A stretch of 46,882 nt of DNA from Verrucomicrobiota bacterium (GTDB lineage: Bacteria > Verrucomicrobiota > Kiritimatiellia > SS1-B-03-39 > UBA6053). Of the stretch, positions 3,512 to 46,882 are shown in pieces. The stretch covers positions 1 to 46,882 of the forward strand of contig JAFIGC010000028.1 in NCBI GenBank assembly GCA_020831635.1. The letters run 5' to 3'. Numbering within the stretch: position 1 is the first letter of the stretch; each line of letters opens with the position of its first letter. The notes below the pieces were generated by a model, which ran no database searches, was not told the DNA's origin, and saw nothing but the letters and a program-made list of their open reading frames with translations. Made by a program: the position numbers and the translations under genes.

Positions 3512-3584
3512 GGGCTCCCCTTGTGGCTTTGGATCGGTTTTGTCCAGAATCTTTGTAAAATCCTTCGAGGGACCTGAATATTTT

Positions 3585-3780
3585 GAAAGCGAACTTTGAA
3601 CATCGAACGTCCAACAGCGAACGTAGAACCGTTGGGGACGGAGGGGGACAGGAGCGCCGATCTCCGCATCGGCAGGGGCGAAGGGGGGCATTTAGCATTC
3701 GTCACTCTGCACTCGGCATTCGACACTCGCCCTCGCTCCGCACTCGTCACTCGTCATTCGTCATTCGACACTCGCGCTGG
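3585..3780. repeat. low-complexity dispersed repeat (GAACATCGAACG and CACTCG-type words)
   Basis: This stretch strings together variants of GAACATCGAACGT and then of the hexamer CACTCG/CATTCG. A related block occurs at 11750-11825, with GAACATCGAACGTTGAACG followed by CACTCCGCATTCCGC. The two are similar in order and wording, so this is a dispersed intergenic repeat and not a gene. The whole gap from 3512 to 4525 holds this block, one hairpin repeat (3644-3691), two inverted repeats and the start of the cassette region. No convincing gene was seen. Confidence 0.6.
3644..3691. repeat. dispersed hairpin repeat, copy 1
   Basis: The core is GGAGCGCCGATCTCCGCATC followed by GGC and a GGGGCGAAGGGGGG tail. 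Other copies are at 28444-28486 and 45059-45107. The arms GCCGAT / ATCGGC form a six-base-pair stem. The third copy has GCCAAT / ATTGGC, a paired change that keeps the stem. Confidence 0.65.
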
Positions 3781-3783
3781 CTT

Positions 3784-3950
3784 ATGGGGGCGGCGCATCT
3801 TGCGCCGGGTGCTCTTCCACCTGATCTTTCTCTAAATATTTCCAAAGCTCAAATTCTATAAAAACGTGCGTGTCTCCCGTGTAGGAGGCAGATTGGATGG
3901 ATGAGCTTGAATTGTTCTGAAGATTCCGGCGCAAGATGCGCCGCCCCCAT
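3784..3950. repeat. perfect 25-bp inverted repeat with 117-bp interior
   Basis: The arm at 3784-3808 (starting ATGGGGGCGGCGCATC) is the exact reverse complement of 3926-3950 (ending GCGCCGCCCCCAT). The interior is AT-richer and has no gene. It could be the ends of a non-autonomous element (MITE- or REPIN-like) or a large terminator or cruciform. Confidence 0.75.
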
Positions 3951-4288
3951 GGTTTTCACTCGAAAGCCTTGACCAGGGGGGCGTGCTGCAAAGGGGGGAA
4001 CAAAGTACTGCCTTCCCCATCTGTATGACCCCATCAGTAACCTATGGAACATATAAAGCTTGAAAATGGCCCGGAAATGTGATCAGGTGGATGTCGAAGC
4101 AAACTTATAAACTTAAATTGGTTAATTTTAGCCGATTTTTGTTTTGATATCCACCAAAATCCGGTTGCTATCGGATTTTCTGACAATCACTTGTTACATT
4201 GGCGATCACCTTAAGTCTATGGGCAAAAGCACTTAGATGGATGACATGACGATTAAAAATAAAAAGCTTGCGAACACTGCTATACATG

Positions 4289-4356
4289 TGTTACACTTCG
4301 TTCCAGCGTTCAGATCATGGGTGAAGTGCTACTGACGACTGGAACGAAGTGTAACA
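4289..4356. repeat. perfect 18-bp inverted repeat, 32-base loop
   Basis: TGTTACACTTCGTTCCAG at 4289-4306 is matched exactly by its complement at 4339-4356, and partial pairing continues into the loop (CAG/CTG). Flanking AAGCTTGC and TTCGAAGCTTGC words extend the symmetry loosely. Its order (GTT first, AAC last) is the opposite of an integron attC, so it is listed separately. It sits at the left edge of the cassette region. Confidence 0.7.
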
Positions 4357-4439
4357 GTCCAAGGGGTTCGAAGCTTGCTGATTTTTTGAAAAAGGACATG
4401 ACAACTATCAAAGAGTATTTGACATTTGGAGCCAGGAGA

Positions 4440-4513
4440 GCACAACGTAACAAAAGGATATTGCGGACGTCATTTCGTTGCACTCATGAAGCCGCAAACC
4501 CTTAACGTTCGCC
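4440..4513 (+). other. candidate integron attC site (junction before the radical SAM cassette)
   Basis: The 3' end has an R'-like box GTTCGCC (4507-4513), 12 bases before the radical SAM start codon. Upstream, an AAC-ending box (4440-4446) and the stem TTGCGG (4460s) / CCGCAA (about 4492-4497) give an imperfect palindrome. The R'' box is a poor complement of R', so this site is weaker than those at 5884 and 8947. The R' is within one base of the complement of the next cassette's R'' (GGCTAAC against the expected GGCGAAC). Confidence 0.45.
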
Positions 4514-4525
4514 GAAAGAGGAATA

Positions 4526-5641
4526 ATGAAAACAACCCAAAATCCCAGTGGACGTAAAAAACAAAGACGCTTGGCTATGCTAACCCTCACTGAAAGGTGT
4601 AATCTTAATTGCGTCTACTGTTACGAGCATAATAAGAGTAAATCTTCGATGAGCTTGGAAACAGCAAAAGCTGTTGTGGAATTTGAATTTGCGAATGCGA
4701 TAGGTTTTGATGAAGTCGAGTTTGATCTATTCGGAGGAGAACCAACCTTGTGTAAGGAATTAATTATAGAGCTTGTGGAATGGACGATTTGTCAAAAATT
4801 CTCCAAACCATTCGTGTTTTTTCTGCAAACAAATGGAACCCTTATACACGGCGACTTTCAAAACTGGCTTGTGCGACACAAACAATTTGTGAAAGTAGGC
4901 CTAAGCTTAGACGGAAGCAGAGAAACGCATAACTTTAATCGAAGTAAATCGTACGATAGGATTGATATTAGTTTTTTTCTTGAGCATTATAAAACTCAAG
5001 GAGTAAGAATGACGATCAATGCTGCTACAATTGAGAACCTCAAGAACGATATTATTCATCTTCATGCACTGGGTTTTGAACGAGTTGATGCGTTTTTCGC
5101 ATATGGTATTGATTGGGACGACTCGCAAGTTCTGTCCACTCTTTGTACCCAATTAAGGGAACTTGCAGACTACTATCTTGATAACCCAAAAATACCGCAA
5201 TGCTCATTGTTTGATATGAGCATACTACGAGTCCTTCATCCCTCAACACGAAGTGAAAAATGGTGTGGAACGGGAACCGAAATGGTATCTGTCGCTGTTG
5301 ATGGGAAAAGGTATCCTTGTCAAGCATTTCAACCCAACACCAATGAAAACCCCATAAGCCTAGATGAAATAGATTTTAATAAAATAAAAGATTTTTCGGA
5401 TAATGAATGCTCCGATTGCCCGATTGAAGCCATTTGCCCAAACTGCTATGGCATCAACTATCTCAAAACTGGAGATATGCTGAAACGAGATAAATCTATT
5501 TGCAACGTAACCAAACTGCGAGCGATGTCGGTATCCTATCTTCGAGGGCAGGAGTTAATACGTGACAGATCAACCCTGTCGCCTGCTCAACTTTTTCAAA
5601 CTATAAAGGCAATTCAAAAATTACAAACCTTAAAAATTTAG
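4526..5641 (+). CDS. radical SAM/SPASM peptide maturase
   Basis: The 371-residue protein carries the radical SAM cluster motif CNLNCVYC (C25, C29, C32) and the glycine-rich FGGEP motif (69-73). A SPASM region for auxiliary iron-sulfur clusters follows: C247, C265, C295, C298, C304, C307 and C326. Enzymes of this build modify ribosomally made peptides, for example by forming thioether or carbon-carbon crosslinks, starting with reductive cleavage of S-adenosylmethionine. An AAGAGGA ribosome site lies about 5 bases before the ATG. A gene for a 65-residue Cys-rich peptide starts 33 bases downstream and is the obvious substrate. No exporter or protease gene is next to it. The island is visibly AT-richer than the flanking core genes, which fits acquisition as a cassette. 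The crosslink type is unknown. Confidence 0.88.
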   Translation: MKTTQNPSGRKKQRRLAMLTLTERCNLNCVYCYEHNKSKSSMSLETAKAVVEFEFANAIGFDEVEFDLFGGEPTLCKELIIELVEWTICQKFSKPFVFFLQTNGTLIHGDFQNWLVRHKQFVKVGLSLDGSRETHNFNRSKSYDRIDISFFLEHYKTQGVRMTINAATIENLKNDIIHLHALGFERVDAFFAYGIDWDDSQVLSTLCTQLRELADYYLDNPKIPQCSLFDMSILRVLHPSTRSEKWCGTGTEMVSVAVDGKRYPCQAFQPNTNENPISLDEIDFNKIKDFSDNECSDCPIEAICPNCYGINYLKTGDMLKRDKSICNVTKLRAMSVSYLRGQELIRDRSTLSPAQLFQTIKAIQKLQTLKI

Positions 5642-5674
5642 CCAAAACAGACCATAACAAACAAGAGGTGTAAC

Positions 5675-5872
5675 ATGAATGAACTAACACTGGAAAAACA
5701 CACAATGACTACTCTCGCCGAGATTGAGCAGGAGTTGAATGAAACACATGGAGCAGCCACACTGCTGGTTGAAGTAGAGAAATCGAGTACAGGTGACAGA
5801 TGTAAAGGTTGCAGTGGAACTTGTGAAGGCTCTTGCAGCGGAAATTGTGACGGCCTTTGCATTATTACGTAG
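5675..5872 (+). CDS. CXXX-repeat peptide, probable RiPP precursor
   Basis: The 65-residue product has an acidic leader (about residues 1-40) and a short core with six cysteines: C43, C46, C50, C54, C58 and C62. The last five are at strict four-residue spacing, with Gly/Ser/Asn/Asp between them (CSGTCEGSCSGNCDGLC). Such CXXX arrays next to a radical SAM/SPASM enzyme are a known signature of radical-SAM-modified peptides. The modification itself, such as Cys sulfur to alpha-carbon thioethers, is an inference. A good ribosome site (AAGAGGTG) precedes the ATG at 5675; a second ATG at 5705 would shorten the leader to about 30 residues. The alternative is a small metal-binding Cys-rich protein, but the neighbouring maturase makes a precursor more likely. 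The attC site begins 11 bases after the stop. Confidence 0.75.
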   Translation: MNELTLEKHTMTTLAEIEQELNETHGAATLLVEVEKSSTGDRCKGCSGTCEGSCSGNCDGLCIIT

Positions 5873-5883
5873 ATCAAAACATC

Positions 5884-5942
5884 GGCTAACAATAAAGGCA
5901 GCGAACCGAGAGTATTCGGTACGCTGCATTAAGACGTTAGCC
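5884..5942 (+). other. integron attC site (59-base element)
   Basis: R'' GGCTAAC (5884-5890) and R' GTTAGCC (5936-5942) are exact complements. L'' GGCAGCG (5897-5903) pairs with L' CGCTGC (5922-5927), and the centre forms ACCGA / TCGGT. The total is 59 bases, the classical length. R' departs from the GTTRRRY consensus at one base. The next cassette's R'' (8947-8953) is again GGCTAAC, the complement of this R', as expected if the recombination cut lies after its G. Confidence 0.8.
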
Positions 5943-5985
5943 ACGCGAGCATAATGCATCAATCGACGAAAAAAGACTACATAAA

Positions 5986-6768
5986 ATGAAAAAAACTCAA
6001 GCATTCAAAATATTCGCAACATGTGCTGAGGCCATCACCAAGGGCGTGTTGATTAAACAGGTGAGCCGATCCGACAAAGAATTTCATTTTCAAAACTGGT
6101 TCGAAAAGCGACTTGAAAGCACAGGCATTCTTTTCGATAAGAGCGGCAGAAATTCCTATCCAGATTTCACGTTAGTTGAGCATACTGAGGGATATGAGAT
6201 CAAAGGTTTAGCATGGCCAGGACGTGAATCAAATTATGACTGTAACAGCCAAGTACCTACCGGTTGGCACAATGGGCGCGACGTCTTTTATGTGTTTGGG
6301 CGTTATCCAAAGCCAGAGGGAGGTAGTAGCGAATATCCAGTAATTGATTTGGTAATCTGTCATGGTGATTTTTTGAACGCAGACCATGAATATGTTCACA
6401 AAAATAAGAACATCAAGGGATTTGGTAGTTACGGCGACATTATGATAAGGGATCGAAAGATGTATGTCGCTCCAACCCCATTTGCATTGGCTGATGGATT
6501 AACCGGAACTCGTACATTTATTACACCAAGTACTTGGAAAGCTCCAAACTCACTAAAGGCAGTTGGGGAACTATCGAGAACAGAGGCAACAAAATTAGTG
6601 GTTGGGTATGAATTCGATCTAAAAAGCAATCGCATCAACGCGAAAACAATTCCCAATCCATCCTCGGGAAATGAGCATTGTTTTACCGCTTATCGAATAA
6701 AGAAGGACAGTGACACTTGTGTTGCCATGACGCAGACTGACCAAAATAGTGTGCAATCTGATGACTAA
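5986..6768 (+). CDS. probable type II restriction endonuclease (PD-(D/E)XK)
   Basis: The 260-residue protein has a PD-(D/E)XK core near its N-terminus: YPDF at 58-61, then GYEIKG with E71 and K73. The catalytic triad would be D60, E71 and K73, and a conserved-looking helix HFQNWFEKRLE precedes it. No helicase or specificity domain is visible, so a stand-alone type II-like nuclease is most likely. Its stop overlaps the methyltransferase ATG by eight bases, which fits a paired restriction-modification system. It starts 43 bases after the attC. The recognition sequence cannot be read from the protein. A simple nuclease with another role is possible, but the partner gene argues for restriction. 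Confidence 0.72.
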   Translation: MKKTQAFKIFATCAEAITKGVLIKQVSRSDKEFHFQNWFEKRLESTGILFDKSGRNSYPDFTLVEHTEGYEIKGLAWPGRESNYDCNSQVPTGWHNGRDVFYVFGRYPKPEGGSSEYPVIDLVICHGDFLNADHEYVHKNKNIKGFGSYGDIMIRDRKMYVAPTPFALADGLTGTRTFITPSTWKAPNSLKAVGELSRTEATKLVVGYEFDLKSNRINAKTIPNPSSGNEHCFTAYRIKKDSDTCVAMTQTDQNSVQSDD

Positions 6769-9004
6769 GCACAATAAGGACGATAGGGAAGGGGCTAATA
6801 AACGAAGGTTGATTGAAGCTGACTTCCCGTTTGCAGAACTTTCACGGATAGCAGAAAGGGAGTCGTGGCGAAAAGAGGTCTACCGCCCTGTTTACTATAT
6901 ACACAAGTGGTGGGCACGTCGGCTGGGATCTGTCTTTCGCGGTGTTCTGCTTGGAGCTTGTCTTGATGAGGATGAGGACTTTTGGAGCAGATTTTATGGG
7001 CATAATGATCTGGACGAAACAGTAATTTTTGATCCCTTTATGGGCAGTGGAGTCACCATTGGCGAAGCTATTAAGCTTGGCTGCACAGCTTTGGGGCAAG
7101 ACATCAATCCCGTTGCCTACCTCGCATGCAAAGCCGCTTTCACGAAGTACAACTTGCCCGAAGTACTAGACACGTATCAAAACCTTGAGCGCACCGTTAG
7201 CTCCAAGATTTTAAGCTATTTCGAAACCCGTACAGACAATGACGAGCAGGCAACCGTACTGTATTATTTTTTAGTAAAAGTCGTCTCTTGCCCAGAGTGT
7301 AATAAGGAAATCGATCTGTTCAAATCTCGTATCTTTTCGAAAAACGCCATACCACGTAAAGATCCGAGCGCACGCTCGGTTTGTCCTGGTTGTAATGCGA
7401 TAAACATTACTCAATACGATGCGGATTCGGTCTTCTGTCCCGAGTGTTCCCGAACTTATAATCCACAAGAGGGCAATATCACCGGAGCAAAAGTTAAATG
7501 TGATGATTGCGGACATCAGTTTCGTCTTGTTGATCGTATGTCTTCACTATGCAGCCCGCTCGGCTATCGGCGGTACGCTAAGATGGTCCTTACTTCTGCT
7601 GGACAAAAGCGATATGCCTCCATGAATTCGTTTGATGACGAGACCGAAATTAGGATCAAAAAGGAATTTTCCGCTTTAAAAAATCCTTTCCCGGAAACGG
7701 AAATCACTTCCGGGCACAATACGAACCAGATTCTCAAACACAACTACCGCTTCTGGCATGAACTGTTCTCGGACAGACAGCTTCTATGTATCTATCATCT
7801 TCAAGAAGCCATCCGTAACATTAACAATCCAGATCACAGACTATTGTTCGCCTGCCTTTTCTCAGGAGTTCTTGAGTTCAATAATTTGTTTGCATCATTC
7901 AAAGGTGAGGGGACGGGTGCTGTGCGACACATGTTCTCACATCATGTTCTGAAACCGGAGATGATGCCCATCGAGGCCAACATGTGGGGAACGAGGAAGT
8001 CTTCGGGATCTTTTTCCACATTATTTCGCTCTCGTATCCTTAATGCGCTTGCCTACAAGGCTGATCCGACTGAGCTCCTGTTGAACTCTGGAATGAGTCA
8101 TAAAATCGGAGGAATCAACCGACCTCTTTCTGTCAAGGTTTCCAAAGATTTTGCTTTGCCCCGCTGCAGCGAAAATACAGCTTTCCTGCGGCAAGGGGAC
8201 TCAAGTTGCACAAACATACCCGATAACTGCGTTGATGTTGTCGTCACCGACCCGCCGTTCTTTGACAACGTTCATTATTCGGAACTCGCCGATTTTTTCT
8301 ATTACTGGATAAACCAGATAATTGGCCACTCCGATGCTGAGACAACGAGACAGGAGGCCGAGGTTCAAGACACCAATCCCCTGCACTTTACTAATAAACT
8401 GACGTCTGTCTTTGCCGAGTGCAATCGAGTACTCAAGAAGGCTGGAGTCCTTGTGTTCACTTATCATCATTCCAGGCATGAGGGCTGGACATCGGTGCAT
8501 CGAGCAATTAGGCATGCCGGGTTCGTCTGCACTCAAGCTTACCCGATCAAAGCAGAGATGTCCGTGTCAATGCCACTAAAACAGGCGAAATCCCCGATAC
8601 ACTTGGATCTGATACTGCTTTGCAAGAAGGATCACGAGGTCGACGAACAACATGCTATCCCTGCCAATATTCAGTCTGCAACCCTGCAAGCCCAAGATCA
8701 GGTTTCAGCACTGAAATCAAATGATATTGCCGTATCGCTCGGAGATGCCAAAGTCATTCTGATGGGACGCTTACTTTGTGAGGCACACCGGATGATGAGC
8801 TTGGAGGATGAAGAGAGGTTCCTGTCAGATATTGAAAAGAACATAGACTCGTATGTAGCTGATGTTATCGAAACTAAAGGAGAAGTCCTCTACAAGCAGA
8901 ATCCATCTGAACAACTCGTTCTTTTTGAAAAGATGGCGAACTATTTGGCTAACAATGCCATACACTCGAACAGGGATTCCGCTACACTTCATCCCCGCCG
9001 GTGA
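6761..9004 (+). CDS. DNA adenine/cytosine-N4 methyltransferase, DUF1156-like
   Basis: From the ATG at 6761 the product is 747 residues; a GTG at 6749 would add four. The N-terminal block IHKWWARRLGSVFRG resembles the HKWWARRP block of DUF1156-type methylases. Motif I FDPFMGSGVT lies near residues 90-100 and catalytic motif IV DPPF at 497-500, followed by a conserved Tyr-Ser-Glu-Leu. Between them are zinc-ribbon-like pairs (CPEC, CPGC, CPEC, CDDC). Such enzymes transfer a methyl group from SAM to exocyclic amino groups of DNA bases. It is coupled to the upstream nuclease gene and would protect host sites. The 3' end of the gene forms part of the attC at 8947-9019. Larger DUF1156 systems also carry helicase or DUF499 genes; none is present here. 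Confidence 0.82.
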   Translation: MTKHNKDDREGANKRRLIEADFPFAELSRIAERESWRKEVYRPVYYIHKWWARRLGSVFRGVLLGACLDEDEDFWSRFYGHNDLDETVIFDPFMGSGVTIGEAIKLGCTALGQDINPVAYLACKAAFTKYNLPEVLDTYQNLERTVSSKILSYFETRTDNDEQATVLYYFLVKVVSCPECNKEIDLFKSRIFSKNAIPRKDPSARSVCPGCNAINITQYDADSVFCPECSRTYNPQEGNITGAKVKCDDCGHQFRLVDRMSSLCSPLGYRRYAKMVLTSAGQKRYASMNSFDDETEIRIKKEFSALKNPFPETEITSGHNTNQILKHNYRFWHELFSDRQLLCIYHLQEAIRNINNPDHRLLFACLFSGVLEFNNLFASFKGEGTGAVRHMFSHHVLKPEMMPIEANMWGTRKSSGSFSTLFRSRILNALAYKADPTELLLNSGMSHKIGGINRPLSVKVSKDFALPRCSENTAFLRQGDSSCTNIPDNCVDVVVTDPPFFDNVHYSELADFFYYWINQIIGHSDAETTRQEAEVQDTNPLHFTNKLTSVFAECNRVLKKAGVLVFTYHHSRHEGWTSVHRAIRHAGFVCTQAYPIKAEMSVSMPLKQAKSPIHLDLILLCKKDHEVDEQHAIPANIQSATLQAQDQVSALKSNDIAVSLGDAKVILMGRLLCEAHRMMSLEDEERFLSDIEKNIDSYVADVIETKGEVLYKQNPSEQLVLFEKMANYLANNAIHSNRDSATLHPRR

Positions 9005-9019
9005 TGGCCAACGTTCGCT
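8947..9019 (+). other. integron attC site overlapping the methyltransferase 3' end
   Basis: R'' GGCTAAC (8947-8953) and R' GTTCGCT (9013-9019) flank L'' GCCAT (8957-8961) and L' ATGGC (9004-9008), with an inner GGGAT / ATCCC stem. R'' exactly complements the R' that begins this cassette at 5936. R' exactly complements AGCGAAC at 9625, in the next cassette. The methyltransferase stop codon (9002-9004) lies inside the site. Confidence 0.7.
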
Positions 9020-9024
9020 AAAAA

Positions 9025-9657
9025 ATGAAATCTATGTCTTGGTCTCACATTGATGAACAAATGCGCTCCTTCGCGCCATTTCTGCGAGACCAATTCGGCA
9101 TAACTCCACCACAGAGCAACCATCTTGCTTCCGAGATCGCTGCCGAAATTCGAATGCTCCCGAGGGAAACATTGGATTCCATCACGGAAGCAGATCCGAT
9201 CAGCGCGACAGCACGTTTGGAAGAGTTGAGAGGATTCCAAATGTTTATGGACATCGTTCAGGCGTTCGAGTCACACCCGTCGGTCACTCGAGCACAAGTG
9301 ATTAATCAGAACTACGTCTGTTTTGTCTACTTGGGTGACGCTTGCTTCAATGCACTACGGAAGGCTGCACCACCAGGTAGCGTGACGAGGAAGTGCTGCA
9401 AATTTCTGACCGACAATCCAGTTCGCGCATTCCGCAACTCTCTCGCCCACGCGAATTGGACTTACCGGGAAGACTTCAGTGGTTTGGTATTCTGGGCACG
9501 CAAGGGAGGCGATCCGAACGAATCCCTTACGAGATTCGAGGTCGGCCAGAACGACCTTAATTTCTGGCAGGCACTTTCAAGATGTGTCGCATATATCGCC
9601 TACACTCTTGTCACCGAAACAAACAGCGAACAAGGCGAGAGAGGCAATTCCGAGTAG
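9025..9657 (+). CDS. HEPN-like protein, cassette-borne
   Basis: A 210-residue, mostly helical protein starting only five bases after the attC end. The notable motif is FRNSLAHANW, with R137 and H142 giving the R-x4-H pattern (RNxxAH) typical of HEPN domains, many of which are RNases of toxin or abortive-infection systems. No second catalytic domain is visible. Being next to a restriction-modification cassette suggests a defence role, perhaps a backup that acts when restriction fails, but cassettes are independent units, so the link is inference. No antitoxin-like nucleotidyltransferase partner is adjacent. The R-x4-H reading is motif-based and needs a profile search. Confidence 0.5.
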   Translation: MKSMSWSHIDEQMRSFAPFLRDQFGITPPQSNHLASEIAAEIRMLPRETLDSITEADPISATARLEELRGFQMFMDIVQAFESHPSVTRAQVINQNYVCFVYLGDACFNALRKAAPPGSVTRKCCKFLTDNPVRAFRNSLAHANWTYREDFSGLVFWARKGGDPNESLTRFEVGQNDLNFWQALSRCVAYIAYTLVTETNSEQGERGNSE

Positions 9658-9660
9658 CGC
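9625..9660 (+). other. truncated attC-like end of the cassette array
   Basis: AGCGAAC (9625-9631), inside the end of the HEPN-like gene, is the exact complement of the R' box (9013-9019) at the start of this cassette, as an R'' box should be. GGCA / TGCC follows as a possible stem, but no GTTRRRY-like R' box appears in the next 100 bases. This suggests that the site lost its distal half. The rest of the gap to 10173 is repeat DNA. Confidence 0.4.
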
Positions 9661-9783
9661 TGCCGTGGGAAAAGTGTCAGGCCGCACCATGTAGCATTTT
9701 GAGGCTCTTGAATACCATTTCATCCTCCCCAACAAGAACCCCAGCCCGCCCGCAAGACTTGCCCCCTGAAGCTTCCAAATTGA

Positions 9784-9835
9784 GTTTCCGAGCGTCGGAA
9801 GACTTTTTCCAGCGACTTCCGAGCGTCGGAAAATC
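9784..9835. repeat. pair of TTCCGAGCGTCGGAA palindromes
   Basis: Two direct copies of the near-palindrome TTCCGAGCGTCGGAA lie about 40 bases apart. The same family (TTCCGACGTTCGGAA) forms an inverted pair at 28584-28634. This is a REP-like dispersed repeat; its function is not visible. Confidence 0.6.
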
Positions 9836-10110
9836 GTTCTTGCCGAATCTTGCCAATCTCCCGAAATGATTTCCGCCGGTTGTAACGCGGCAACAAATTC
9901 ATGGGCACAATTGGGCCAAACCCCGAGGATTTATGAGGCCGGGGGGAGTGGCATCCCGTTGGGGTGCGGGTTCGTGTGGGGATGCCAATCCCGGGGTTTC
10001 ACCCCGGTCTGACGAGTGGCATCCCGTTGGGATGCGACTTCCGGGAAGGGACCCATTCGATGAAAGACCCCAACGGAGTCCCACTCGTCAGCCCTCGGGC
10101 AAGGCCCTGA
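9828..10110. repeat. composite direct repeat, copy 1 (left of ATPase 1)
   Basis: The order of words is CTTGCCAATCTCCCG, GGTTGTAACGC-GCAACAA, ACAATTGGGCCAAA, GAGGATTTATGAG, then a 79-base palindromic unit at 10011-10089. That unit starts GACGAGTGGCATCCCGTTGG and ends in its complement, CCCCAACGG...CACTCGTC. The same words in the same order recur at 11393-11690, and most of the last part recurs at 13305-13515. Confidence 0.7.
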
Positions 10111-10135
10111 CGAGTATACACAATTTTATGCTTTT

Positions 10136-10173
10136 ACCTTGAAAATCGGGAATTCATTCCCTAATTTCAAGGT
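10136..10173. promoter_or_regulatory. 38-bp palindrome abutting the ATPase 1 start codon
   Basis: The arms ACCTTGAAAATCGGGAAT and ATTCCCTAATTTCAAGGT match at 16 of 18 positions around a two-base centre. The symmetry ends at the first base of the ATG. It may be an operator, a start-site hairpin that limits translation, or an insertion target. No factor can be named. Confidence 0.6.
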
Positions 10174-11352
10174 ATGATGATGAAACGTAAGCTTGAGTCC
10201 GAGTTACGCGACCGTCTTCGGACGAGTCCGGTGGTGGTGTTGCTGGGGTCACGCCAGGTGGGAAAAACGACCCTGGCTCGAGGATTGTCATTGGACAAAC
10301 CGACGCATTATCTGGATTTGGAACGTCCTTCGGATCTGGCAAAGATGGCGGACCCGGAACTGTATCTGTCCGGTCGGTCGGATTGCCTGGTGATTTTGGA
10401 TGAGATCCAACGGGTTCCCGATCTTTTTCCGGTGCTTCGCAGTCTGGTGGACGAACGGAGACGCAAAGGAGAGAAAGCGGGGCATTTTCTGTTGCTGGGG
10501 TCGGCCTCGCCGGAGCTATTGCAACAGAGTTCGGAAAGCCTGGCCGGCCGCATCAGCTATCTGGAATTGACCCCGTTGCAGGCAAACGAGCTGCCAATGG
10601 GGGAGGAGTCGCTGGAAACCCATTGGGAACGGGGCGGCTATCCGGACAGCTTTTTGGCTTCGGACGAAAGTGAGTCTCTGCGGTGGCGGGATGATTTCAT
10701 GACCAGCCATGTGGAGCGGTTTCTGCCGCAGTTGGGGATTGAAGCCACACCGTTGTTGTTGCGCAGGCTTTGTACCATGCTGGCTCATCAGCAGGGAGCC
10801 ACATTGAACCTGAGCCGACTGGGGAGTTCATTGGGCATTAGCGGCAAAACCGTCCGTCATTATCTCGATTTGTTGGAGGGCCTGTATTTGATGCGCATCC
10901 TGCCGCCCTGGAGTCGAAATGTGGCCAAGCGGCTGGTGAAATCGCCGAAACTCTACTGGCGGGACAGTGGGCTTTTGCATGCGCTGATCGGATTGCAGAC
11001 CTTGGAGGATGTGCTGGGTCATCCTGTCTGCGGCGCTTCATGGGAAGGGTATTGCATCGAGCAAATCGCGCTGGCCGCTCCCCGAAAAACGATATTCAGT
11101 CACTATCGCACCCATGCCGGGGCGGAGGTGGACTTGGTGATGGAGTATCCGAACGGCGATGTCGTGGCCGTGGAAATCAAACGGACCTTGTCTCCAAAGC
11201 TCACCCCAGGACTGATCGAAAGCATGACCACCCTGGGGGCGGATCGAGGTTTGATCGTGATTCCCAAGGGCGAGGCGTATCCCCTCTCGGAAACGGTGAA
11301 TGCCTGCGGGTTGTGGGATTTTTTGGAAGGAAGGTTGGAAGTTGCCCGTTGA
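10174..11352 (+). CDS. AAA ATPase with C-terminal DUF4143 (PD-(D/E)XK-like) domain
   Basis: The 392-residue protein has Walker A GSRQVGKTT (residues 25-33), Walker B LVILDEIQRVPDLF and the arginine-bearing sensor stretch GSASPELLQQSSESLAGR. A winged-helix segment sits near residues 195-245, and a C-terminal nuclease-like motif reads AEVDLVMEY...VAVEIK (ExK intact). These ATPases are common in genomes with many repeats and are not assigned a firm function; mobile-element or toxin-antitoxin-like behaviour has been proposed. It is flanked by direct repeats on both sides and has a palindrome ending at its start. It shares family with the gene at 11925 but little sequence identity. Confidence 0.82.
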   Translation: MMMKRKLESELRDRLRTSPVVVLLGSRQVGKTTLARGLSLDKPTHYLDLERPSDLAKMADPELYLSGRSDCLVILDEIQRVPDLFPVLRSLVDERRRKGEKAGHFLLLGSASPELLQQSSESLAGRISYLELTPLQANELPMGEESLETHWERGGYPDSFLASDESESLRWRDDFMTSHVERFLPQLGIEATPLLLRRLCTMLAHQQGATLNLSRLGSSLGISGKTVRHYLDLLEGLYLMRILPPWSRNVAKRLVKSPKLYWRDSGLLHALIGLQTLEDVLGHPVCGASWEGYCIEQIALAAPRKTIFSHYRTHAGAEVDLVMEYPNGDVVAVEIKRTLSPKLTPGLIESMTTLGADRGLIVIPKGEAYPLSETVNACGLWDFLEGRLEVAR

Positions 11353-11392
11353 AAGTTGCCGGTTGCCGGTTGAATGGGGGTGGGGTCATGTA

Positions 11393-11690
11393 TCGGAAAA
11401 TCGTTCATGTCGAACTTCGCCAATCTCCCGGAATGATTTCTTGGGTTCTGATCCACCGGTTGTAACGCTGCAACAAAAGCAAGGACGCAATTGGGCCAAA
11501 ACCTGAGGATTTATGAGTTCTGGAGGAGTGGCATCCCGTTGGGATGCGACATCCGGGAAGGAACCCAATTCGGTGAAAGACCCCAACGGGATCTCACTCG
11601 TCAGCCCGGCGGCAACGCCCCGGGAAACGTATCCTCCCCGTTTGCCGACCCCAATGGGGGCGCACCCCTCTTTGTCACGAGCTTTGTCTC
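11393..11690. repeat. composite direct repeat, copy 2 (between the ATPases)
   Basis: This is the second copy of the unit described at 9828-10110, including the palindromic part at 11525-11602. From about 11591 to 11677 it continues with words CAGCCCGGCGGCAACGCC and CGTATCCTCCCCGTTTGCCG that are nearly identical in copy 3 (13423-13510). The gap between the ATPases (11353-11924) holds only this, a low-complexity repeat and the palindrome before ATPase 2. Confidence 0.75.
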
Positions 11691-11749
11691 AAGCTTTGTC
11701 TGGAACTTTGTCCCCGAAGGCCAGCGCCTCCCGCATTTTTTGGGGCAGG

Positions 11750-11825
<76 letters not shown>

Positions 11826-11877
11826 CCTTTTCCCATAAGATTGCGCGGATTCACCGCAAAGATCTCAAGGATTCAGA

Positions 11878-11933
11878 TTATATTAGACTTTGCAGAAGTC
11901 TAAATATAAAGTATATTAGTCTTTATGAAAGAC
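11878..11933. promoter_or_regulatory. palindrome and 33-base-spaced direct repeat at the ATPase 2 start
   Basis: The arms TTATATTAGACTT (11878-11890) and AAGTCTAAATATAA (11896-11909) form a palindrome with one unpaired base. TATATTAG-CTTT recurs 33 bases on at 11912, and GTCTTT-ATG-AAAGAC (11919-11933) is symmetric around the start codon itself. The AT-rich palindrome differs in sequence from that of ATPase 1 but sits in the same place. Confidence 0.6.
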
Positions 11934-13244
11934 CAAATTAAGCAGATCGTGCAGGAGAAAATTCTCAGCGGGATGCAACGTCATTTGCCTGCATTTACCC
12001 GGAGGGATGTTCGGATCCCATTGATTTCCGGCAAGGCGATGACGGTGATCGGTATGCGGCGTGCCGGGAAAACCACTTTTTTACATCAGGTGCGCTCGGA
12101 TCGGATTCGGGAGGGTGCGGCTCCGGAATCTCTGGTGTATTTCAATTTTGAAGACGAGCGTTTGGCCGGGTTTCAGGCGGAGGACCTGCATCGAATTCTC
12201 AGCGTCCATCAGAGACTTTATGCTTTGCCGGAAGATGTCCGGAGCACGTTTTTTCTGGATGAGATTCAACTGGTGCCGGGTTGGGAATCTTTTACCCGCC
12301 GTTTGTTGGATGAAGACGGATGTGATCTCTTTTTATCGGGATCGTCCGCACTTCTCTTGAGCCGAGAGATTGCCAGTTCCATGCGGGGACGCGGCTGGGA
12401 AATCAACATCCAACCGTTTAGCTTTCGGGAGAGTCTGCGGCATAGGAATTTGGACATTCCCGGGACACCTCATCGGTTGACGGCACGGGAGCAGGCCTCC
12501 TTTGACCGATATTTCCGGGAGTATCTGGAGGCCGGCGGCTTTCCGGAAGCACAGGGTCTGGAGACGATTGACCGACGGCAACTTTTGCAGGGCTATGTGG
12601 ATTCCCTGCTGTTGCGGGATGTGATTGAACGGCATCGGGTGACTAACCCCACGGCTTTGCGCTGGATGACCCGGCGTTTGTTGGGAAATCCGGGGGGACT
12701 GTTTAGCGTGACCAAATTCGAGGCGGATCTAAAGTCGCAGGGCATCGCGGTTGGGCGGGAGAGTCTTTATCAATTTTTGGGTCACTTGGAGGACGCGTTT
12801 TTGTTAAATGCGATTCCAGTCGCCACCGACTCTGAAAAACGGCGTCAGGTGAATCCCCGGAAAATCTATCCGGCGGATCCTGCGATCGGCCCAGTATTTG
12901 ACCGAAGCGCCAAAGCGAACCTGGGGCACGCTCTGGAAGTTGCCGTTCAGAATGAACTTTCCCGTCAGGGCGCGGAAACCGCCTATGTGAAAACGCCGGA
13001 AGGATTCGAGGTGGACTTCCTCAGCCGAAATGCGGATGGAACGCAATGGTTGATCCAAGCCGCGGTTCATGTGGATGATGCGGAAACGCTGGGTCGTGAA
13101 TGTCGGGCGTTGATCGCGGCAAAACAATTTTTTGCCGCGGATCGGTTGCTTCTGCTTACAGGAGAATCCAGGATGCCAATGCCCGCCGTTCCGAAAGGCA
13201 TCGAGGTGATTCCGGCCTGGCAATGGATGCTGTCCCATCCGTGA
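11925..13244 (+). CDS. AAA ATPase with DUF4143 domain, second copy
   Basis: The 439-residue protein has Walker A GMRRAGKTT (residues 43-51), Walker B FFLDEIQLVPGWE (about 108-120) and the sensor GSSALLLSREIASSMRGR. The C-terminal DUF4143-type region follows. Its nuclease-like motif reads FEVDFLSRN...LIQAAV, so the ExK lysine seen in the 10174 gene is replaced and the nuclease is probably inactive. It has no partner gene in an operon. It lies between copies 2 and 3 of the composite repeat, which, with the neighbouring ATPase, suggests spread or rearrangement by recombination between repeats. Confidence 0.82.
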   Translation: MKDQIKQIVQEKILSGMQRHLPAFTRRDVRIPLISGKAMTVIGMRRAGKTTFLHQVRSDRIREGAAPESLVYFNFEDERLAGFQAEDLHRILSVHQRLYALPEDVRSTFFLDEIQLVPGWESFTRRLLDEDGCDLFLSGSSALLLSREIASSMRGRGWEINIQPFSFRESLRHRNLDIPGTPHRLTAREQASFDRYFREYLEAGGFPEAQGLETIDRRQLLQGYVDSLLLRDVIERHRVTNPTALRWMTRRLLGNPGGLFSVTKFEADLKSQGIAVGRESLYQFLGHLEDAFLLNAIPVATDSEKRRQVNPRKIYPADPAIGPVFDRSAKANLGHALEVAVQNELSRQGAETAYVKTPEGFEVDFLSRNADGTQWLIQAAVHVDDAETLGRECRALIAAKQFFAADRLLLLTGESRMPMPAVPKGIEVIPAWQWMLSHP

Positions 13245-13304
13245 AAGATTGGACCTGAATCCGTGAGAGGGGGCCGATCTTCCATTTCGCCATTTTAAAC
13301 CCAT

Positions 13305-13515
13305 CGTTCTTTTCGAATCTCGCCAATCTCCCGAGCCCGGGGGTTCACCCCGGTCTGACGAGTGGCATCCCGTTGGGATGCAAATTCCGGAATGGGACAC
13401 CATTCCCAATCGACCCCAACGGGGTCTCACCCGTCAGCCCGGCGGCAACGCCCCGGGAAACGTATCCTCCCCGTTTGCCGACCCCAACGGGGTCGCACCC
13501 CTCTTTGTCGGGAAA
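13305..13515. repeat. composite direct repeat, copy 3 (right of ATPase 2)
   Basis: Words TCGCCAATCTCCCG, CCGGGGGTTCACCCCGGTCT and the 79-base palindromic part (13357-13435) are followed by the same 85-base tail as in copy 2. The left half of the unit is shorter than in copies 1 and 2. The rest of the gap from 13245 to 13742 shows no gene. Confidence 0.7.
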
Positions 13516-13614
13516 AATCACCGGAAAATCTTCATTTTCATGCCCGGAATAGGCTGGGGCTATGGAAGAGCGGTTCGCGACTGCATTTTGATCAATCTTT
13601 CTTCTTTTTTCCGT

Positions 13615-45401: not shown

Positions 45402-45457
45402 CCTGAACACAGGTGGCATGCAGAAAAAACAACGAGTTTCTGAATATAATGTTCGGT
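45402..45457 (+). other. candidate integron attC site (left edge of the right-hand cassette)
   Basis: An R'-type box GTTCGGT (45451-45457) is the exact complement of the R'' box ACCGAAC of the attC at 46489, the match expected when both belong to one cassette. Upstream, CCTGAAC (45402-45408) and a CAGAAA / TTTCTG stem give a plausible but loose site body. The R' match is the stronger evidence. Confidence 0.45.
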
Positions 45458-45480
45458 AAAAAGTTGTGAAAAGGAACCCA

Positions 45481-45894
45481 ATGCCGAAAGCATCATACAG
45501 ACAGTTTTCGATCGAAGTTTCTGATGGCTGGTCGGTGAGAGTGGAGAGCGACTCCACATCTGATTTTCTCAGCATCACACACAGCAACCACTCGGCACAA
45601 CTTCGCCTCTCAACCTTTGACCCACAGCAGATGTCAGCAAAGGACTGGGTGGAATTCGCGGCGAATACGAACCGGATGAAGAATCGTTCTGTATTGGCTA
45701 CCGAAGTTGGACCGCTGGCGGGGTACGAGGTCCAATTTACCGGAGGCCTCACTTGGATTCGTGGATGGGTTCTTGAATGCAACGGAGTTCCACTGGATAT
45801 AACCTACCGATCCGACATCAGCCTACGCGGACTCGATGATGCAGACATCGATGCAATGCTCAAATCGCTACAGGTGAATCCAAGCATCGAATAA
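45481..45894 (+). CDS. hypothetical cassette protein
   Basis: The ATG at 45481 follows an AAAAGGA ribosome site and gives 137 residues; a GTG at 45466 is the alternative. The product is a small soluble alpha/beta protein with alternating strands (WSVRVESDSTSDFLSITHS, YEVQFTGGLTWIRGWVLE) and a C-terminal helix. It is reminiscent of small PsbP/DcrB-like folds, but I do not recognise a family. It lies in the interval bounded by R' boxes at 45451 and 46558. Confidence 0.55.
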   Translation: MPKASYRQFSIEVSDGWSVRVESDSTSDFLSITHSNHSAQLRLSTFDPQQMSAKDWVEFAANTNRMKNRSVLATEVGPLAGYEVQFTGGLTWIRGWVLECNGVPLDITYRSDISLRGLDDADIDAMLKSLQVNPSIE

Positions 45895-45897
45895 GGC

Positions 45898-45936
45898 GTC
45901 ACCTACTCTGCCCGACAAATCCAAACAGCAGGTGAC
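45898..45936. terminator. GTCACCT / AGGTGAC hairpin after the hypothetical gene
   Basis: Perfect seven-base arms flank a 25-base loop, three bases after the stop codon. No strong T-run follows on the plus strand, so terminator activity is uncertain. It has no R' box and is not an attC. Confidence 0.3.
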
Positions 45937-45984
45937 AAAACCCTGCCAATGTGGTAAGTATAAGACAACTTCCGGAGCTTTATT

Positions 45985-46233
45985 ATGCCAGTTATAGCAC
46001 GTTTCTATGGGATCCTGATCAAAATGTACTTTCGTGAGCACGGTGTGCCGCATTTTCATGCTGTCTATGCCGAGTTTAATGGAGTGTTCGACTTAAACAC
46101 CTTGGAGATGATTGAGGGTGACCTCCCGCCACGGGCTCAGCGCCTCGTGCGCGACTGGGCAGAAAGGTACAAAGGCGAGCTACAACGGATGTGGGAAACC
46201 CAAGATTTTATGAAACTCCCTGGATTAGAGTAA
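45985..46233 (+). CDS. DUF4160 protein
   Basis: The 82-residue protein has the full DUF4160 pattern: MPVIARFYGILIKMYFREHG, PHFHAVYAEF, and the tail LVRDWAERYKGELQRMWE. The family is small, often paired with DUF2442, and suspected to be part of a toxin-antitoxin-like unit; its activity is not established. A DUF2442 gene starts three bases after its stop, so the two are probably translated together. Confidence 0.85.
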   Translation: MPVIARFYGILIKMYFREHGVPHFHAVYAEFNGVFDLNTLEMIEGDLPPRAQRLVRDWAERYKGELQRMWETQDFMKLPGLE

Positions 46234-46236
46234 AAT

Positions 46237-46521
46237 ATGAAAACAACCGCGAAATACCCAAAGATACGAAACGTAAGTCCGAAACCTGGCAAGACTTTGC
46301 TGGTCACCTTCGACAACGGCGACAGTAGGCTATACGATTGCAAACCTCTTCTTGATAAAGAAGTCTTTCGCCCGCTGCGTGAAGAAGCCATCTTTCGATG
46401 CGCTCATGCCGACTCCCACGGACACGGTGTCGTTTGGAATGATGATATCGATCTTGCCGAGTCCGAGATCTGGCTCAACGGAAAATTCACCGAACCAGAC
46501 GATGCCCTCGACAAACAATAA
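46237..46521 (+). CDS. DUF2442 protein
   Basis: The 94-residue protein shows DUF2442 features: VSPKPGKTLLVTFDNGDSRL, then YDCKPLL, and the end GVVWNDDIDLAESEIWLNGK. It is the usual partner of DUF4160; a DNA- or partner-binding role is suspected only. The stop codon lies inside the attC hairpin, typical of compact cassettes. Confidence 0.82.
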   Translation: MKTTAKYPKIRNVSPKPGKTLLVTFDNGDSRLYDCKPLLDKEVFRPLREEAIFRCAHADSHGHGVVWNDDIDLAESEIWLNGKFTEPDDALDKQ

Positions 46522-46564
46522 CCGCTACGCGGCTATTGTTTGCGAGTGATCGTAGACGTTAGGT
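46489..46564 (+). other. integron attC site
   Basis: R'' ACCGAAC (46489-46495) and R' GTTAGGT (46558-46564, a full match to GTTRRRY) enclose a long imperfect stem. The paired blocks are ACGAT / ATCGT, CTCG / CGAG, CAAACAATA / TATTGTTTG and CCGC / GCGG around a TAC loop, with single unpaired bases as in attC sites. The total is 76 bases. Confidence 0.75.
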
Positions 46565-46571
46565 AGGCAAT

Positions 46572-46832
46572 ATGACTAAAAACAAATTTATCTTACATAA
46601 TGGCGTAAAAATGATAGAAGGCTGGCCTGAACAGATCGAAGACAGCCAAAAAATATGCAAATACAATGTGGACGGAGAAGACGTTGATCGCATTCCTTTC
46701 GGAAATGAGACGTATATGAAAAATGAATATTTAACTGCATGTCCTGACTGCGGTGTGACTCTAGGTCAGTTTCATGTTGCATTTGTATGCGATACCGAAG
46801 AATGTCCCGTGTGTCATACATCACTATTGTAA
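46572..46832 (+). CDS. small zinc-ribbon-like cassette protein
   Basis: An 86-residue protein starting eight bases after the attC. Its C-terminal half has two CxxC pairs (CPDC about residues 56-59; CPVC about 78-81) plus an extra Cys, a likely structural zinc ribbon. The N-terminal half reads like a short beta domain. I do not recognise a family. It appears to be the first gene of the next cassette, whose own attC is beyond the window. Confidence 0.6.
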   Translation: MTKNKFILHNGVKMIEGWPEQIEDSQKICKYNVDGEDVDRIPFGNETYMKNEYLTACPDCGVTLGQFHVAFVCDTEECPVCHTSLL

Positions 46833-46882
46833 GCGTCCGGGGATCGACCCACTGGCGTGCCGGGTTTGTCCGTGGTAAGATG

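What the first reader, a model, noticed from the sequence alone, without database searches (positions are those of the whole stretch)
4440..9660. Integrase-less integron cassette array (CALIN) in a Verrucomicrobiota-like chromosome
Three attC-like sites separate the radical SAM, restriction and HEPN genes, all on the plus strand with short leaders. The best evidence is cross-junction matching. Integrase cuts after the G of R', so the rest of each R' belongs to the next cassette, whose own R'' should be complementary. The R' at 5936 (GTTAGCC) matches the R'' at 8947 (GGCTAAC) exactly. The R' at 9013 (GTTCGCT) matches AGCGAAC at 9625 exactly. The R' at 4507 matches the R'' at 5884 at six of seven bases.
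Basis: partly seen in the sequence, partly recalled or inferred. Interest (0 to 1): 0.8.

Follow-up and report, generated by a model that had tools for sequence, protein, structure and literature searches.

The report
Integron array with attI, no integrase
The window carries a real string of mobile gene cassettes that still begins with its docking site but lacks the enzyme that normally sits beside it; relatives show that such enzyme-less docking sites are scattered through these genomes and that their cassettes still change.

Summary
Three attC sites (4445-4513, 5884-5942, 8947-9019) lie on the + strand at the stated places, far above shuffles (0.015 hits expected, 3 seen). A covariance model trained only on other genomes finds two of them.

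The array is larger than reported. The fourth site (9625) is half an attC.

"Integrase-less" holds locally, not for the genome: an intact lineage-A IntI lies on contig C120, and about 36 attCs lie on other contigs. The window's right end holds a second attI-headed array (45451) without intI.

Across the family at least eight attI-headed loci lack intI. One is shared by two species with the same flanks but different cassettes, which implies turnover by IntI acting from elsewhere.

Contents: a long structured palindrome found in four genomes; a CXXX-repeat peptide with radical-SAM maturase; a restriction-modification pair; a possibly HEPN protein.

A known kind (CALIN), in an informative variant.

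The parts
4128..4195 (+). attI of lineage B; crossover G^TT at 4193 (core CAATCACTTGTT 4184-4195)
   Evidence: 58 bp at 79% (E 8e-11) with the attI beside intI in relative G008; same core beside intI in G009 and G011
4193..4507 (+). Cassette 1, no evident ORF: 314-bp conserved imperfect palindrome
   Evidence: Homologues with the same G^TT boundaries in G009 (83%), G010 (68%) and G011; folds z=-4.8; compensatory changes
4445..4513 (+). attC of cassette 1 (R'' ACGTAAC, R' GTTCGCC)
   Evidence: CM R1 24.8 bits, E 0.003; homologous attC in G009, G010
4526..5641 (+). Cassette 2 gene 1: radical SAM/SPASM peptide maturase, PapB / CXXX-repeat type
   Evidence: NF047865 150 bits, TIGR04115 150 bits, both below cut-off; PF04055 above cut-off
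5675..5872 (+). Cassette 2 gene 2: 65-aa precursor peptide with CKGCSGTCEGSCSGNCDGLC (Cys every fourth residue)
   Evidence: Translation; TIGR04117 E 1e-3 and TIGR04114 E 0.13, below cut-offs
5884..5942 (+). attC of cassette 2
   Evidence: CM R1 33 bits, E 5.7e-5; bottom strand folds z=-6.0
5986..6768 (+). Cassette 3 gene 1: PD-(D/E)XK nuclease-like protein (D60, E71, K73)
   Evidence: 53-61% identical to four plasmid proteins, motif invariant
6749..9004 (+). Cassette 3 gene 2: N6/N4 DNA methyltransferase, DUF1156/PglX-like
   Evidence: PF01555 above cut-off; PADLOC PglX/DUF1156 models; same gene pair in four plasmids
8947..9019 (+). attC of cassette 3
   Evidence: Scanner 15.7 (0.0025 per shuffle), 7/7 cross-junction match to R' 5936; missed by CM R1
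9025..9657 (+). Cassette 4: 210-aa helical protein with RNSLAH (R-x4-H), possible HEPN
   Evidence: Translation; 45% to an Emticicia plasmid protein near kwaAB and rloB; no Pfam match
9625..9665 (+). 5' half of the attC of cassette 4 (R'' AGCGAAC, L''); L' and R' missing
   Evidence: 9617-9665 is 84% identical to an attC start in G011; exact cross-junction match to R' 9013
45441..45453 (+). attI of lineage A (TGAATATAATG^TT), head of a second array without adjacent intI
   Evidence: Pattern found 9 times in 12 genomes against 1 for the reversed control; beside intI in C120, G004, G007, G010
45451..46558 (+). Right array, cassette 1: unknown ORF 45481-45894, DUF4160/DhiT-like 45985-46233, DUF2442 46237-46521
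   Evidence: boundaries by 7/7 match GTTCGGT/ACCGAAC
46489..46564 (+). attC of the right array
   Evidence: Scanner 20.75, the highest in the window; bottom strand folds z=-6.7

Best explanation
Positions 4128-9665 are an integron cassette array that keeps its docking site (attI, integrase lineage B) but has no integrase gene beside it. Cassettes were inserted at G^TT of this attI by a lineage-B IntI, now absent from the assembly, or one acting from elsewhere, and stacked in the same direction; the last attC was later cut in half, so cassette 4 is probably locked. The array is one of several attI-headed loci in this genome that lost intI: C194 keeps about 20 codons of it, C287 an internally deleted copy, C57-right and C57-left none. 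Only C120 keeps an intact gene, of lineage A. That IntI could still act from a distance on the lineage-A attI at 45451 and, through attC x attC recombination, excise cassettes 1-3 of the left array. Shown here: attI homology, attC sites, junction matches, absence of intI nearby, intI remnants at sister loci. Inferred: order of events and present activity.
For: attC sites. attI. Orphan attI duplicates an integrase-linked one inside a complete genome: G009 1795909 is 92% identical over 141 bp to the attI beside intI at 2468859, and the homology stops about where the intI frame begins. intI remnants: C194 aa 1-21 at 90%, C287 internal deletion. Two integrase lineages, 57-83% and 48-76% identical within and 30-37% between, each with its own attI core. 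Cassette turnover at a locus without intI: G008 C76 and G009 share 275 bp upstream including attI (89%) and a downstream gene (82%), with unrelated cassettes between (about 2.3 kb against 12 kb) and no intI in either.
Against: attI function is inferred from position, homology and junction complementarity, not from recombination. CM R1 misses 8947-9019, and the folds of 4445 and 8947 are only modestly better than shuffles (z -1.4 and -1.6). The assembly is fragmented (308 contigs, 96.5% complete), so a lineage-B intI could be missing from it. Only 4.2 kb lie left of the attI in this contig. No intI remnant is detectable beside either attI of the window, so loss in place is not directly shown there.
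Confidence: 0.85

Rival explanations
1. The cassettes were inserted one by one at a chromosomal secondary site (attG-like) by a distant IntI, so that no attI was ever present.
For: One of the three origins of CALINs proposed in the literature (PMC8618304). The genome has an active-looking IntI elsewhere.
Against: The head of the array is 79% identical over 58 bp to an integrase-linked attI; in closed genome G009 an orphan head is 92% identical over 141 bp to its intI-linked attI.
Confidence: 0.06
2. The array was split from the genome's main integron by a chromosomal rearrangement and moved with its attI, intI staying behind, rather than intI being deleted in place.
For: Left flank (MoxR, DUF58, SBF symporter) and right flank (alternative complex III operon) are not neighbours in G009 (3.44 and 1.13 Mb), and window 3548-13543 is variable against the same-genus genome G004.
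Against: No lineage-B intI is found anywhere in the assembly. Sister loci show remnants of intI next to attI, as expected of deletion in place.
Confidence: 0.25
3. The attC-like sites are chance inverted repeats and the genes are an ordinary defence island.
For: The restriction-modification pair and the cassette-4 protein have relatives in defence-like surroundings on plasmids.
Against: Shuffle and real-sequence controls, the independent covariance model, cross-junction matches, and the same architecture next to intI in relatives.
Confidence: 0.02

Closest known systems
[quoted passage not shown] Cury et al. 2016 as cited in PMC8618304)
   Same: Several attC sites in one orientation, cassettes of one or two genes, no intI nearby
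   Different: Headed by a recognisable attI of a defined integrase lineage; the genome holds several such heads and an intact intI elsewhere
CALIN with its own attI in Shewanella prophage M16-3 (PMC9892861)
   Different: There one case in one prophage; here at least eight chromosomal loci over six genomes, two attI types, intI remnants, and one locus with exchanged cassettes between species
Sedentary chromosomal integron (as in Vibrio; here G009 1.69-1.735 Mb)
   Same: Same attC family, large arrays, IntI of the same family in the same genomes
   Different: The window arrays are short and lack intI
sRNA-Xcc1 and ORF-less promoter cassettes (PMC12444791, PMC6557892)
   Same: Integron cassettes whose cargo is not, or not only, a protein
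   Different: The palindromic cassette matches no Rfam family and is found only in four genomes of this family; RNA or DNA function is open
CXXX-repeat / PapB ranthipeptide systems (TIGR04115, NF047865)
   Same: Radical SAM/SPASM maturase beside a short peptide with Cys at every fourth residue
   Different: Scores below the curated cut-offs, and it sits in an integron cassette; a full-text search found no report of such a cassette

Membership tests
CALIN | At least two attC sites close together | tested here: met
   Three complete attCs in 4.6 kb
CALIN | No integron integrase nearby | tested here: met
   tblastn with 12 related IntIs finds none in the window; best weak hit E 0.09
Complete integron | intI adjacent to attI | tested here: not met
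Complete integron | attI at the head of the array | tested here: met
   Homology to integrase-linked attI; function not assayed
Integron gene cassette | R'' of a cassette complementary to the R' remainder at its own start | tested here: met
   6/7, 6/7, 7/7, 7/7, 7/7 at five cassettes
Integron gene cassette | Recombination by IntI at G^TT of the bottom strand | not testable with these tools
   Needs an assay
CXXX-repeat / PapB ranthipeptide maturase | Score above the curated family cut-off | tested here: not met
   150 bits against cut-offs of 340-350
CXXX-repeat / PapB ranthipeptide maturase | Adjacent peptide with CXXX repeat | tested here: met
   C at every fourth residue in the 65-aa ORF; TIGR04114 12.8 bits against 20
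Restriction-modification pair | PD-(D/E)XK motif in the nuclease partner | tested here: met
   D60, E71, K73 invariant in five proteins
Restriction-modification pair | Methyltransferase partner of recognised family | tested here: met
   PF01555 43.8 bits, cut-off 26.7
HEPN (cassette 4) | HEPN fold and R-x4-6-H motif | tested here: inconclusive
   Motif RNSLAH present; no Pfam match; single-sequence model mostly helical but pLDDT 46

The most novel reading that the evidence does not exclude
In this family of Kiritimatiellota the integron is a split system: many attI docking sites, most without an integrase gene, are scattered over the chromosome and are kept supplied with cassettes by one or two distant integrases. 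'Integrase-less' arrays would then be working parts, not relics. The evidence is the G008/G009 locus, whose flanks and attI are shared while all its cassettes differ and neither copy has intI.
Probability: 0.5. Interest if true: 0.75.

Novelty: new variant of a known kind. Interest (0 to 1): 0.6.

Why it matters
How CALINs arise (stray insertion, loss of intI, or rearrangement) is an open question because attI is usually unknown outside a few integron classes. Here attI can be recognised for two integrase lineages, so the origin of each array can be read directly: arrays headed by attI come from integrons, not from stray insertion. The G008/G009 locus, and one intact IntI next to several orphan attIs in one genome, make work at a distance testable. 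The cassettes also carry unusual cargo: a radical-SAM peptide pathway, a two-gene restriction system of 3.1 kb, and a conserved structured palindrome.

Tried and rejected
Rfam: no match at gathering scores in the whole window; permissive matches around the palindrome (mir-205 and others) are chance hits of a long hairpin. Plasmids hold no DNA similar to the palindromic cassette. A short pattern found 71 viral contigs, but none contains the element by covariance model. Two weak phylum hits (E 0.03) were not pursued and are probably chance. Test of RNA against DNA: standard pairs broken to G-T and to A-C are about equally frequent (69 and 73 over all comparisons), so the strand or the RNA nature of the palindrome cannot be decided; template-switch repair of quasi-palindromes could also produce compensatory changes without selection. 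Promoter and terminator scans of 4080-4560 found nothing above shuffles. No clean empty site was found: the flanks of the left array are not adjacent in relatives and the 10 kb between them are variable. The single-sequence fold of the cassette-4 protein failed (pLDDT 46). IntegronFinder's attC_4.cm was not available; model R1 stands in for it.

Full report
WHAT IS THERE. The window is the whole of contig C57 of a 6.0-Mb genome in 308 contigs. Its close relative G009 is CP120722.1, Kiritimatiellota bacterium B12222.

CHANCE. An R/L-box scanner gives three plus-strand sites of score >=14.5 in 4101-9800 against 0.015 per dinucleotide shuffle (400 shuffles), and none in 35 kb of other window sequence on either strand. 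Filters were set after seeing attCs of related genomes, so I also built a covariance model from 50 attCs of other genomes. It finds 5884-5942 (E 5.7e-5) and 4445-4513 (E 0.003) but not 8947-9019. The last rests on its L-box stem with one extra-helical base and on its exact 7/7 match to the preceding junction. The bottom strands of 5884 and 46489 fold far better than shuffles (z -6.0, -6.7), those of 4445 and 8947 modestly (z -1.4, -1.6).

THE ARRAY BEGINS WITH attI. Window 4212-4495 resembles the first cassette beside intI in relative G010. Following that homology leftwards gives a G^TT at 4193 whose upstream 58 bp are 79% identical (E 8e-11) to the site beside intI in G008. The same core, AATCACTTG^TT, lies beside intI in G009 and G011 as well. 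This is attI of a lineage I call B. A second core, AATATAATG^TT (A), lies beside intI in C120, G004, G007 and G010 and at window position 45451. The A pattern occurs nine times in 12 genomes against once for its reversed control, the B pattern 18 times against once; some B hits, in coding sequence and without attC, are chance. In most loci where the first attC lies in reach, its R'' is the exact complement of the attI junction. The two integrase groups are 57-83% and 48-76% identical within and only 30-37% between.

THE GENOME IS NOT INTEGRASE-LESS. An intact IntI lies on C120 (TIGR02249 436 bits, cut-off 265), with the HxxR and tyrosine motifs in place. Thirty-eight attC-model hits lie on about 20 contigs, two of them in the window. 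C287 holds an intI with an internal deletion next to attI, C194 only about 20 codons of it next to attI. The window holds two attIs and no trace of intI.

ORPHAN attI ARRAYS ARE COMMON IN THE FAMILY. Besides C57-left, C57-right and C194 they occur in G004 (C484), G005 (C31), G008 (C76), G009 (1795909) and G010 (C34, C177), with no intI in the 8-16 kb upstream where that much contig exists. In G005 C31 and G010 C34 the first attC is degenerate or distant. G009 is a single closed contig, so assembly breaks cannot explain it there. Its orphan attI is 92% identical over 141 bp to its own integrase-linked attI, and the homology ends about where the intI reading frame begins.

TURNOVER WITHOUT A LOCAL INTEGRASE. 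G008 C76 and G009 share 275 bp up to and including the attI (89%) and a gene beyond the array (467 bp, 82%). Between them G009 has about 12 kb with at least 11 attCs and G008 about 2.3 kb with one detected attC, and the cassettes are unrelated. Neither has intI there; both carry a lineage-B intI elsewhere. The simplest reading is that the locus lost intI before the species split and IntI acting from a distance has since exchanged its cassettes. Independent losses after the split would also fit, though both copies end at the same upstream sequence.

CASSETTE 1 (4193-4507) has no evident gene. Homologues with the same G^TT boundaries exist in G009 (83%), G010 (68%) and G011 (covariance E 8e-10), the last in mid-array beside intI, so it moves as a cassette. 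The whole body folds into a rod (z -4.8, -7.9, -4.0, -10.0 for window, G009, G010, G011). Compensatory double changes exceed expectation, for example 18 against 4.4 between window and G010. G-T and A-C departures are equally common, so I cannot say whether it acts as RNA or as folded DNA, and template switching could mimic covariation.

OTHER CARGO. Cassette 2 pairs a radical SAM/SPASM enzyme nearest to PapB and CXXX-repeat maturases (150 bits, below the cut-offs) with a 65-aa peptide bearing Cys at every fourth residue. A plasmid relative of the enzyme (40%) is also followed by a short Cys-containing peptide. Cassette 3 (3.1 kb) is a PD-(D/E)XK protein plus a DNA methyltransferase, a pair kept together in four unrelated plasmids. 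Cassette 4 may be HEPN (motif only); its attC is cut after about 9665, so it is probably locked.

HOW IT WORKS, AND LIMITS. Cassette insertion at attI and stacking follow from established integron biology. Loss of intI is shown at sister loci and inferred here. Present activity is inferred. The left array's matching integrase lineage is not seen in this assembly, so new insertion at 4193 is unlikely unless lineage-A IntI accepts this attI; excision of cassettes by attC x attC recombination by the C120 IntI is possible. Literature: CALINs can be mobilised in trans (stated in PMC12444791), three origins have been proposed (PMC8618304), and one attI-headed CALIN is known in a Shewanella prophage (PMC9892861). 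No report on integrons in Kiritimatiellota was found in the searched library, which is incomplete.

Noticed in passing
window 45441-46882: A second attI-headed cassette array without adjacent intI runs off the right contig end; its first cassette holds a DUF4160 protein (DhiT-toxin-like, 84.6 bits, below the cut-off of 100) and a DUF2442 protein, which looks like a toxin-antitoxin pair.
   Followed up: yes
L017 9290-10693 (G000:C120) and relatives: Integrases of both lineages carry an N-terminal extension ahead of the usual SAM-like domain (PF13495 starts at residue 157 in C120), and in C120 part of the extension weakly matches the N-terminal part of the integrase model a second time.
   Followed up: partly
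L018 1-1300 (G000:C287): An intI with a large internal deletion next to an intact attI, whose first cassette ends in an attC stretch identical to that of the first cassette on C120 although the cassettes differ.
   Followed up: partly
window 10174-13453: Two AAA_14/DUF4143 ATPase genes separated by intergenic repeats of 100-150 bp that recur several times here and elsewhere in the window.
   Followed up: no
attI-B sites of G005, G009, G011 (L195, L051, L044): Lineage-B attIs contain an inverted repeat 30-50 bp before the crossover whose arms differ between species but stay complementary (GATCCACC/GGTGGATC, GCACC/GGTGC), perhaps a structural part of attI.
   Followed up: no
L034, L037 (G009): About 1.4 kb 99.6% identical between the two integron regions of G009, apparently an insertion element inside both arrays.
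   Followed up: no
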